The translations under genes and the position numbers were made by a program. Below the pieces are notes generated by a model. That model had not been told where the DNA came from, did not search any database, and saw nothing but the letters and a program-made list of their open reading frames with translations. A DNA stretch of 64,000 nucleotides from the NCBI RefSeq assembly GCF_016865445.1, contig NZ_AP024412.1, forward strand, positions 372,001 to 436,000, written 5' to 3'. Positions 53,439 to 56,765 of this stretch are shown piece by piece (position 1 is the stretch's first letter; the number at the start of each line of letters is the position of its first letter). This DNA is from Mariniplasma anaerobium (GTDB taxonomy: Bacteria > Bacillota_I > Bacilli_A > Acholeplasmatales > Acholeplasmataceae).

Positions 53439-54650
53439 TTATTTTGCGTTTATTCGTATGATTTCTTTATAAATTTCAACAGCTTTTTCCATTTGGTTAA
53501 TAGATGCGAACTCTAATCTACCATGGAAATGATAACCACCAGTTCCAAGATTAGGACAAATTAAACCATCATAGGTTAATCTAGCTCCATCTGTTCCGCC
53601 TCTGATAGGTTCTATTTTTGGCGCAACACCTTGGTTGATTGTAGCTTGTTTAGCAAGTTCAATCACATACATATGATCTTTAATAATGTCATACATATTA
53701 TAATAACTATCTTTAATATCTACATCTACAACTTTATAACCATATTTATCATTTAAATACTTAGCAATCTTTAAGAATTCATCTTTTTGTTGTTTGAATA
53801 AATCTTTATCATGATTTCTTACGATGTATTGCACATGTGCGTGTTCTACTTGTCCTTTAATTTGTGTTAAATGATTAAAACCTTCATAGTTTTCAGTATA
53901 TGCAGGATTTAAAAACACTGGAAGTAGTTGATGAAATTCCATAGCTAGATGAACTGCGTGGATTAATTTATTTTTAGCTGATCCCGGATGGATAGATTTA
54001 CCAATGAAATCTAGTGTGACAGTTGCTGCATTAAAGTTTTCATATTCAATGCCTCCAACTTCGCTACCATCTGCAGTATATGCAAAATCAGCTTTGAAAT
54101 AATCATGATCAAAACGGTTTGCGCCATTACCGATTTCTTCATCTGGAGTAAAACAAATATAAATATCCCCATGTTTTTCTTCTTTGTGAGAAGTATAATA
54201 TTTTGCAAGTTCCATAATTTCAGCAACGCCGCATTTATCATCAGCACCTAGTAAAGTGTTTCCATCAGTGACAATGATATCTTGCCCGATAACTTTACTC
54301 AAACTAGGATATTGATTAGGATGCATAGAAATAGTATCATTTAACTTAATTGTAGTGCCATCATAATTTTTAATAATTCTTGGAGTTACATCCTTGCCTG
54401 GTGCATCAGGAGAAGTATCTACGTGAGCAATAAAGCCTATAGCTTTTTTACCTTCCGTATTTTTTTCTATTTTCGCATAAACATATCCATCTTTATCCAA
54501 AAATGCATCAAGTCCCATTGCTTTTAATTCCTCAACAAGTAATCTAGATAAGTCTTTTTGTTTTTCAGTTGAAGGAAATGATTCAGATTCATGATCTGAT
54601 TGTGTATCAATTGCTACATATCTTAAAAATCTGTCTATTAGTGTATTCAT
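53439..54650 (-). CDS. pepT: Peptidase T (tripeptide aminopeptidase)
   Basis: A 403-residue zinc M20B peptidase that releases the N-terminal residue of tripeptides in the cytoplasm. Metal and catalytic motifs are IAHVDTSPDAPG, LLGADDKCGVAEIM, FTPDEEIGNG and GGTDGARLT. The length is normal. The ribosome site AGGAAAC precedes the ATG on the minus strand. The proposed left end of the IS110 element is only 28 bases upstream of the start codon, so the original promoter has probably been cut off from the gene. Confidence 0.93.
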   Translation of the reverse strand: MNTLIDRFLRYVAIDTQSDHESESFPSTEKQKDLSRLLVEELKAMGLDAFLDKDGYVYAKIEKNTEGKKAIGFIAHVDTSPDAPGKDVTPRIIKNYDGTTIKLNDTISMHPNQYPSLSKVIGQDIIVTDGNTLLGADDKCGVAEIMELAKYYTSHKEEKHGDIYICFTPDEEIGNGANRFDHDYFKADFAYTADGSEVGGIEYENFNAATVTLDFIGKSIHPGSAKNKLIHAVHLAMEFHQLLPVFLNPAYTENYEGFNHLTQIKGQVEHAHVQYIVRNHDKDLFKQQKDEFLKIAKYLNDKYGYKVVDVDIKDSYYNMYDIIKDHMYVIELAKQATINQGVAPKIEPIRGGTDGARLTYDGLICPNLGTGGYHFHGRLEFASINQMEKAVEIYKEIIRINAK

Positions 54651-54750
54651 ATAAGTTTCCTAATATATATATGTAGTCCTAAATATATATTAGATTCTCC
54701 TTCTTTATAGTTTTTTGACGCGGACTACTTTATAATTGAATTAGATCATA

Positions 54751-54878
54751 TCACAGACTAGTTTACTTCTTCCTTACAGCGCTTTTGCGACTGGTTTAGA
54801 AAGGATATAGCTGTGACTTTAATTAAATATGGTAATGAGTTGGATACAGCGCTTTATGCGACTGGTTATTTCTTATTA
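54751..54878 (+). ncRNA. Candidate IS110 bridge RNA with two similar stem-loops
   Basis: Two copies of one apical hairpin, CAGCGC-loop-GCG-A-CTG, occur 70 bases apart (54777-54793 and 54847-54864; loops TTTT and TTTAT). The first is closed by TCACAG/CTGTGA (54751-54756/54811-54816) and CTA/TAG, leaving a large internal loop. The second is closed by TAATGAG/CTTATTA (54833-54839/54872-54878), leaving a 7 + 7 internal loop. IS110 bridge RNAs have such a target loop followed by a donor loop in the left non-coding end. The fold is read by eye, not computed. Confidence 0.55.
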
Positions 54879-54939
54879 GGTTACATCGATTAAAGTTTAC
54901 AGTCTTTGCACGTGATGATCAAAGAAAGGATTGATTTTT

Positions 54940-56115
54940 ATGATTTACATAGGCATTGATGTCGCCTCAAACAAACATGACATCGTTATAACCAATAACC
55001 TCGGTGTCCTTTTTAAGAAACCTTTTAAAATTATAAATGATTTAGAAGGATATAAAAAACTCCTCAGTGAGATTAAGTTAGCTAAAGAGTTCTTTTGTGA
55101 TCAAATAGTTCGTATAGGGCTTGAATCAACTGGGCATTATAGCAGAAACATCCTGCATTACCTCATCCGTGGCGGATATGATGTAATGTTCATTAATCCA
55201 TTATTAACCAATATGGACCGTAAAGCATCTTCAGTTCGTAAAACGAAAACTGATTCTATTGATGCGAAGGCTATTTGTATGTTTCTTATTAGAAATCAAA
55301 ATGATTTCAAACCCTATACACTTTCATCATATCACATTGATGAACTCAAAACACTAGTCAGATTAAGAAAATCCTTGAAAAAACAAATCAATAAGGATGT
55401 CAATCAACTACACGCATATATTGACCAAGCTTTTCCTGAATATAATAAAATTTTTAATAAACTTGTCAGTAAAACTTCATTAGCTGTTCTTGCACGTTAT
55501 GCTTCTTTATCAGAATTAAAAAGGGTTAGACTAAATACGTTAATCGAATTAATTAAAACGGCGTCTAAGGGTCACCTTGGACTCATACAAGCTAAAGATC
55601 TTAAATCCTTGCCTCTGACCTCAATTGGTATGGATAGTCAAGCTTTATCCTTTTCAATCAAAGGTTCTATTGTGCGTATTAATTTACTAAACGATCAAGT
55701 CAGTTTAATTGAAGAAGAAATAAAACTTAATGTAGATATGACGAAGACGACCTTACTTTCTATTCCAGGAATCAGTTATACGACAGGTGGTATTATTTTA
55801 GCTGAAATCGGTGATATCAGCTTATTTAAATCCGCTGATGCATTACTTGCTTTTGCTGGTCTTGACCCTTCTGTTTATCAATCTGGTAAATTTGAAGGTA
55901 ACTATAGGATTTCAAAACGTGGTTCTTCAATCTTTAGATGGGCTATGTTTCAATCTGCTCAAGCAATTGTTAAATTTGATCCTACCTTTAAAGCATACTA
56001 CCTAAAAAAGAAAGCTCAAGGTAAGAAGCATCGTAATATCATTGGTCATGTCACTAAAAAACTGATGCGTGTTATATACTCTATTTTAAAAAATAATTCT
56101 ACCTATATTAAATAG
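54940..56115 (+). CDS. IS110-family transposase (DEDD recombinase)
   Basis: A 391-residue recombinase. The N-terminal RuvC-like DEDD domain shows Asp 7 (IGIDVASNKHD), Glu 62 (LESTGHY), and Asp 105/Asp 108 (KTDSIDAK). A helical stretch follows, then the Tnp_20 domain with LLSIPGISYTTGGIILAEIG and YRISKRGSS, where Ser 325 is the expected nucleophile. All catalytic residues are present and the frame is intact, so the element may be active. The start at 54940 follows AAAGGA by 9 bases; a TTG 9 bases upstream is too close to that site. Confidence 0.92.
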   Translation: MIYIGIDVASNKHDIVITNNLGVLFKKPFKIINDLEGYKKLLSEIKLAKEFFCDQIVRIGLESTGHYSRNILHYLIRGGYDVMFINPLLTNMDRKASSVRKTKTDSIDAKAICMFLIRNQNDFKPYTLSSYHIDELKTLVRLRKSLKKQINKDVNQLHAYIDQAFPEYNKIFNKLVSKTSLAVLARYASLSELKRVRLNTLIELIKTASKGHLGLIQAKDLKSLPLTSIGMDSQALSFSIKGSIVRINLLNDQVSLIEEEIKLNVDMTKTTLLSIPGISYTTGGIILAEIGDISLFKSADALLAFAGLDPSVYQSGKFEGNYRISKRGSSIFRWAMFQSAQAIVKFDPTFKAYYLKKKAQGKKHRNIIGHVTKKLMRVIYSILKNNSTYIK

Positions 56116-56289
56116 GTTCATTAGCCATATTTAGTTTCCAAAGAACTTGGTGTTTCATAGACATCCTTTTTTAGTTTGCCTTTATATCAAAACCATTATT
56201 TTTATTTTATACTTGACTTATTTAGAATAGTTGGCTTTCTATATATATAACTATTATAACGCAAAAAATTAAAAAAATTAAGTATGAAA

Positions 56290-56342: not shown

Positions 56343-56371
56343 TTGACAAATGATATAAAGTTTAATATAAT
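56343..56371 (+). promoter_or_regulatory. Consensus promoter of the SHOCT-like/DUF2089/ABC cluster
   Basis: TTGACA (56343-56348), 17-bp spacer, TATAAT (56366-56371): a full match to the vegetative consensus. TTAATAT (56362-56368) is repeated inverted as ATATTAA (56389-56395), which may be an operator. Confidence 0.9.
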
Positions 56372-56411: not shown

Positions 56412-56765
56412 ATGACAAAATATGAAGTTCTTAATCAACTATCATCAAATGAGATTGATTATCAAAAAGCATATGAGATGTTATATCCAAAAATTAAAAA
56501 AAGAAAAGCAAGGAAAGCAAGATTTGTTAAATTAAAAATAAACATCCCAGATAGCAAAGGGGCAAGTGCATTTGTTAACACATTATTCTTGTTTCCAATT
56601 CCGATATCGTTCATTATGTTTTTCTTAAGAAAGAGACTCAATGAACATATTGATGAAAATATACCTATGTCGATAAAAGATTTTGTTGAAATGGGAGCTG
56701 TAAAAGGTGCATTTATAGAAGTAATAGCTAAAGATAATACTCATATATTAATAAAAACAATTTAA
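56412..56765 (+). CDS. Small protein with N-terminal SHOCT-like module and one membrane-like helix
   Basis: A 117-residue protein of unknown function. Residues 4-26 (YEVLNQLSSNEIDYQKAYEM and on) fit the short helical pair seen in SHOCT-like and YvlB N-terminal regions; a very basic stretch follows (KIKKRKARKARFVKLK), and residues about 56-72 are hydrophobic (NTLFLFPIPISFIMFFL). The end, with VIAKDNTHILIKTI, looks like the beta-rich tail of the related gene at 57367. Start follows AAGGCGG. First gene after a consensus promoter. Confidence 0.6.
   Translation: MTKYEVLNQLSSNEIDYQKAYEMLYPKIKKRKARKARFVKLKINIPDSKGASAFVNTLFLFPIPISFIMFFLRKRLNEHIDENIPMSIKDFVEMGAVKGAFIEVIAKDNTHILIKTI

What the first reader, a model, noticed from the sequence alone, without database searches (positions are those of the whole stretch)
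54679..56236. IS110 element with readable bridge-RNA guides and a reconstructable target
At the right end, AGTTGG-CT-TTCTA matches guide segments of both loops about one CT: AGTTGG is in the second (donor) loop at 54838-54843, and the first (target) loop has TAGAAAG (54797-54803), complementary to CTTTCTA. At the left end CT is followed by AAATA, complementary to TATTT of the donor loop (54867-54871); TAGTCC before it pairs with TAGTTT (54759-54764) allowing wobble. The meeting of donor and target matches at the same CT is what bridge-RNA recombination predicts.
Basis: partly seen in the sequence, partly recalled or inferred. Interest (0 to 1): 0.82.

Follow-up and report, generated by a model that had tools for sequence, protein, structure and literature searches.

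The report
RNA-guided transposon aimed at gene starts
This is a small mobile DNA element whose own guide RNA steers it into the ribosome-binding site of genes, and its left end often seems to carry a replacement ribosome-binding site, which would explain how it can jump into such places without silencing the gene.

Summary
The element is a real IS110-family insertion sequence with a two-loop bridge RNA, but the finding is only partly right. The right end, donor guide AGTTGG and right target guide TAGAAAG are correct. The left end is wrong by 19 bp. Other copies, and an empty site in a congener (CATATAAGTTTC-CT-TTCTATA), put the element at 54660-56236. The true left target guide is about ACTTCTTCCT (54765-54774) and the right donor guide TATTAG (54874-54879). 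Bridge-RNA pairing is supported by structural covariation and by guide/site covariation across homologs (none of 20,000 permutations as high).

The main point was missed: the target is the Shine-Dalgarno (SD) sequence of pepT. Of 56 insertion sites of related IS110 elements, 46 have an ATG of an open reading frame 2-14 nt from the left end (chance 5.6%), on the opposite strand. The guides encode SD, or SD plus CAT. In most lineages the left end, read towards the host gene, also carries a strong SD and a covarying hairpin; all 12 elements lacking this SD leave the host's own SD in place, and none of 56 has neither. I propose that the element's end restores the site it splits; that last step is inferred.

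The parts
54660..56236 (+). IS110-family element, counted here with the CT at both ends (one CT stands in the empty site)
   Evidence: copies compared; empty sites in congeners
54660..54661 (+). left core CT (LT-CT-RD junction)
   Evidence: empty site in G003
56235..56236 (+). right core CT (LD-CT-RT junction)
   Evidence: empty site
54660..54693 (.). left-end hairpin, arms 54660-54670 and 54683-54693 (11 bp, perfect)
   Evidence: sequence; homologous hairpins covary
54696..54704 (-). SD-like AGAAGGAGA on the bottom strand, reading towards pepT
   Evidence: -9.7 kcal/mol with anti-SD
56213..56218 (+). -35 box TTGACT in the right end; the circle junction puts it 17 nt from TAATAT
54661..54666 (+). 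-10-like TAATAT of the circle-junction promoter
54748..54900 (+). bridge RNA core: target-binding hairpin then donor-binding hairpin
   Evidence: RNAalifold and pair counts on 19 homologs
54765..54774 (+). left target guide (ACTTCTTCCT, ends with core equivalent)
54797..54803 (+). right target guide TAGAAAG, complementary to CTTTCTA
   Evidence: sequence
54838..54843 (+). left donor guide AGTTGG
   Evidence: sequence
54874..54879 (+). right donor guide TATTAG, complementary to left end CTAATA
54931..56115 (+). IS110 transposase/recombinase ORF (TTG start; the in-frame ATG at 54940 is the likely start)
54648..54661 (-). target: ATG and SD of pepT (bottom strand AGGAAACTTATATG)
53439..54650 (-). 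target gene, peptidase T-like, 403 aa, intact (named from its sequence; no profile search run)

Best explanation
The element is an IS110-group bridge-RNA transposon. Its excised circle would join right and left ends, making a promoter for the upstream non-coding RNA. The target loop of that RNA is programmed to a translation initiation site: the left guide reads ..TTCTTCCT and the right guide is complementary to CTTTCTA, together the reverse complement of the Shine-Dalgarno motif AGAAAGGA. The recombinase therefore inserts it in fixed orientation into the SD of genes, here pepT. Shown: element ends, empty site, structure covariation, guide-target and guide-donor covariation, target class. Inferred: RNA expression, activity, and the idea that the left-end SD plus hairpin lets the downstream gene keep being translated.
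For: Transposase domains and sequence match to the IS621 recombinase 8wt6, with DEDD and serine motifs aligned. Two copies differing by 1 SNP. Empty sites for the window copy and for three other IS110 insertions of this genome, each exactly at the predicted core. Bridge-RNA helices: 97.9% of cells paired, 46 cells changed on both sides, covariation 0.392 vs shuffled 0.177, and below 0.1 in every slid control. Guide permutation tests for all four guides. Natural guide changes followed by target changes: sibling elements L034/L035 (RTG CGAGGAG vs TGTGGAT; RT TCTC vs CCACA), and L074 (AATTGAG/CTCAATT). Junction promoter at exactly 17 nt spacing in all six lineages checked. Start codon with ORF within 20 nt in 52 of 56 sites (null 13.5%); ATG at 2-14 nt in 46 of 56 (null 5.6%).
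Against: No RNA data. Some guides fit imperfectly (window copy LTG 3/9 by exact match; L036 RTG 1/5). G028 RT fits 3/5. The permutation treats related copies as independent. L038 is not near an ATG (TTG only); L030, L032, L046 and L079 were not scored as near an ORF start.
Confidence: 0.9

Rival explanations
1. The clustering at gene starts is survivorship: insertions occur widely but only those just upstream of start codons persist.
For: Insertions inside genes are often lost; gene-dense small genomes.
Against: The insertions face the same way, sit at a nearly fixed distance (mostly 5-12 nt) from the start codon, and the guides themselves encode SD and CAT. Survivorship would not make RTG and RT co-vary.
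Confidence: 0.06
2. The left-end pyrimidine tract and hairpin are not a replacement SD but part of the circle-junction promoter, a fold-back inhibitor of outside transcription, or a structure bound by the recombinase.
For: The -10 box lies in the first arm of the hairpin; a few elements keep the hairpin without the SD (L005, L057, L063).
Against: The tract is an anti-SD match placed right beside the hairpin (41 of 52 strongest matches in a 12-nt window of 97 positions). It is missing only where the host SD is retained (37/12/7/0 table, Fisher 9e-8).
Confidence: 0.4
3. One reading: left end at 54679 with LTG TAGTTT and RDG TATTT.
For: Short complementary matches exist at those coordinates.
Against: The 19 bp to the left are shared by all copies and absent from the empty site.
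Confidence: 0.01

Closest known systems
IS621 / IS110-group bridge RNA elements (Durrant 2024, PMC11208160; structure PMC11208158)
   Same: DEDD + serine recombinase, upstream ncRNA with target and donor loops, CT core, junction sigma70 promoter, no duplication beyond the core
   Different: IS621 targets REP elements; this clade targets Shine-Dalgarno/start-codon sequences; left end carries a covarying hairpin plus SD-like tract
IS1111/IS110 seekRNA elements (Siddiquee 2024, PMC11187229)
   Same: short RNA with matches to both target strands, order as in the IS110 type
   Different: the target types named there that I read (attC, REP, an IS3 transposase motif) are not translation start sites; ncRNA downstream in the IS1111 group
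IS900 / IS901 / IS902 of mycobacteria (from memory: target CATGN4-6CNCCTT, between RBS and start codon; fetched here only for the hed gene, PMC8141618)
   Same: insertion between SD and start codon in one orientation
   Different: I know no bridge-RNA explanation or replacement SD described for it; not compared by sequence here

Membership tests
IS110 family | DEDD RuvC-like N domain and Transposase_20 C domain | tested here: met
   PF01548 4e-34, PF02371 1e-25; catalytic motifs aligned to IS621
IS110 family | no terminal inverted repeats at both ends; no target duplication beyond core | tested here: met
   empty sites; the inverted repeat found lies within the left end only
IS110-group bridge RNA system | structured ncRNA with two loops upstream of the recombinase | tested here: met
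IS110-group bridge RNA system | LTG/RTG complementary to target, LDG/RDG to donor ends | tested here: met
IS110-group bridge RNA system | junction of RE and LE makes a sigma70 promoter | tested here: met
   TTGACT-17-TAATAT here, TTGATT-17-TATAAT in homologs; sequence only
IS110-group bridge RNA system | RNA expressed, bound by recombinase and needed for recombination | not testable with these tools
   no RNA or protein data
IS1111 group | ncRNA downstream of tnp, subterminal inverted repeats at both ends | tested here: not met
   ncRNA is upstream; repeat confined to left end
IS900-type RBS/start-codon targeting | insertion between SD and ATG with CATGN4-6CNCCTT consensus | tested here: inconclusive
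   same target class; consensus recalled from memory, IS900 itself not compared

The most novel reading that the evidence does not exclude
A broad lineage of IS110 elements has bridge RNAs programmed to translation initiation regions (SD, spacer and ATG), and its left ends evolved a replacement SD brought near the host ATG by a covarying RNA hairpin. RNA-guided insertion then leaves the target gene translatable. The replacement SD is dispensable only where the guide leaves the host SD on the gene side.
Probability: 0.5. Interest if true: 0.78.

Novelty: new variant of a known kind. Interest (0 to 1): 0.62.

Why it matters
It ties the old observation that some IS110 elements sit between ribosome-binding site and start codon to a guide RNA, and gives a natural answer to why an RNA-guided transposon would choose a motif found at thousands of genes. 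If the left end really restores translation, the element carries its own repair for the damage it does. That is directly testable, and useful for placing cargo upstream of genes with bridge recombinases.

Tried and rejected
Rfam: no family reaches its threshold in the region, so the bridge RNA is not in Rfam by that test. Scans for sigma70 promoters and intrinsic terminators in the integrated form gave fewer hits than shuffles, so no integrated promoter for the RNA and no terminator at the left-end hairpin is claimed. Phylogenetically independent pairs for the SD trade-off: 4-5 pairs, all differing pairs in the predicted direction, too few for significance; the tree held 39 of the 56 elements because my ORF filter missed the rest. 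One genome-contig scan returned only five loci, so most homologs come from the genome search. Literature searches for IS110 with Shine-Dalgarno, start codon or ribosome-binding site found no paper joining bridge RNA to translation starts in the held library; Green 1989 on IS900 was not looked up. Several scripts used hand-picked end positions; typed flanks were checked against the sequences and typed donor strings likewise.

Full report
WHAT IS THERE. The ORF at 54931-56115 (+) is an IS110 transposase: PF01548 (4e-34) and PF02371 (1e-25). By sequence it matches the solved IS621 and ISCro4 recombinases, with the GID, LESTG, KTDSIDA and YQSG motifs aligned to IS621. The genome, an Acholeplasmatales-like chromosome of 1.9 Mb (inferred from named relatives), holds a second full copy differing by one base. 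A relative, G007, has three copies and G028 one, at 72-74% DNA identity.

ENDS. Four congeners keep the pepT upstream region without the element. In the closest, G003, the site reads CATATAAGTTTCCT|TTCTATA, exactly the window flanks joined at one CT. The second copy and two other IS110 insertions of this genome (L083, L084) also have empty orthologous sites at the predicted core. The element is therefore 54660-56236 with the core CT at each end, and nothing else is duplicated.

BRIDGE RNA. An alignment of 19 homologous upstream regions gives a target hairpin and a donor hairpin. Counting pairs gives 97.9% paired cells, 11 of 18 pairs with changes on both sides, and a covariation score of 0.392 against 0.177 in shuffles and below 0.1 in every slid control. 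With the corrected ends the four guides read: LTG ACTTCTTCCT (54765-54774), RTG TAGAAAG (54797-54803), LDG AGTTGG (54838-54843), RDG TATTAG (54874-54879, complementary to the left end CTAATA). Across homologs the guides follow their sites: RTG-RT 3.68 of 5 vs 2.19 permuted, LTG-LT 5.87 of 9 vs 4.34, LDG-LD 5.35 of 6 vs 3.05, RDG-RD 4.75 of 5 vs 3.71, none of 20,000 permutations as high in any test. The near-identical elements L034 and L035 differ in RTG (CGAGGAG, TGTGGAT) and their right targets differ to match (TCTC, CCACA). In all six lineages checked, right end plus left end makes a -35/-10 pair spaced 17 nt, as reported for IS621 (PMC11208160). Expression is not shown.

TARGET. The target, read on the other strand, is AGAAAGGAAACTTATATG: Shine-Dalgarno sequence, spacer and start codon of pepT. 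This is not a single case. Of 56 insertion sites from this and related lineages, 52 have a start codon opening an ORF within 20 nt of the left end (13.5% expected from random window positions), and 46 have an ATG at 2-14 nt (5.6% expected). The gene lies on the strand opposite to the transposase, reading away. In the window's own clade the guides encode the SD (LTG ..CTTCCT or ..CACCT, RTG AGAAAG or GGAG). In the more distant lineages the left guide also contains CAT, the start codon, and the right guide GGAGG. The published bridge and seekRNA papers that I read mention no ribosome-binding target. From memory, IS900 and relatives were described decades ago as inserting between RBS and start codon, so the target class is not new; I did not fetch those papers.

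LEFT END. Read towards the host gene, most left ends carry a strong SD-like tract (AGAAAGGAG type), then a hairpin, then the core, then the host ATG. The hairpin covaries between families: 88% of cells paired, 25 cells changed on both sides vs 6.5 in shuffles, score 0.297 vs 0.087. Where the left-end region has a clear SD match, the strongest one lies in the 12 nt next to the hairpin in 41 of 52 elements, from 97 positions scanned. Elements whose insertion takes the host SD away from the gene have this tract; elements lacking it are those whose insertion leaves AGGAG or AGGTG with the gene. The counts over 56 distinct left ends are 37 with IS SD only, 12 with host SD only, 7 with both, 0 with neither (Fisher 9e-8; Spearman -0.53). 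The thresholds were chosen by me, and related families are not independent: on the transposase tree only 4-5 independent contrasts exist, all differing ones in the predicted direction, which is too few to be significant. The window element has the tract (bottom strand, 54696-54704), a perfect 11-bp hairpin (54660-54693) and a weak retained AGGAA.

MECHANISM. Most likely: the excised circle expresses the bridge RNA, the recombinase pairs it with a donor and an SD target, and the element enters the translation start of a gene. I infer, at about even odds, that the left end then supplies an SD that the hairpin holds near the start codon, so the gene stays translatable. The hairpin may instead, or also, serve the junction promoter, whose -10 lies in its first arm.

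STATUS. The element is an ordinary IS110 member in protein and RNA. The programmed targeting of translation starts, traced to its guides, and the replacement-SD layout make the clade a new variant of a known kind.

Noticed in passing
window 54744-54749 with 54915-54920: A second helix closing the whole RNA (GATCAT/ATGATC) is in the minimum-energy fold and has counterparts in homologs (e.g. L034 AAGCACTG/CAGTGCTT); it shares bases with the outer stem of the target loop, so the two may be alternatives.
   Followed up: partly
window 56343-56371: Perfect 12/12 sigma70 promoter (TTGACA-17-TATAAT) just right of the element, before the ORF at 56412.
   Followed up: no
L083, L084 (G000:C1:1117018-1118151 -, 1644683-1645819 +): Two further IS110 lineages in the same genome, also in translation start sites with empty orthologous sites in a congener.
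   Followed up: yes
L091, L092, L083, L045-L050: In the CATGTAA lineage the left end itself contributes an ATG (ACATG on the bottom strand) just upstream of the host ATG.
   Followed up: no
L038 1173: A homolog whose left flank has no ATG nearby (TTG only) and whose left guide ends in CAAT instead of CACCT or CTCCT.
   Followed up: no
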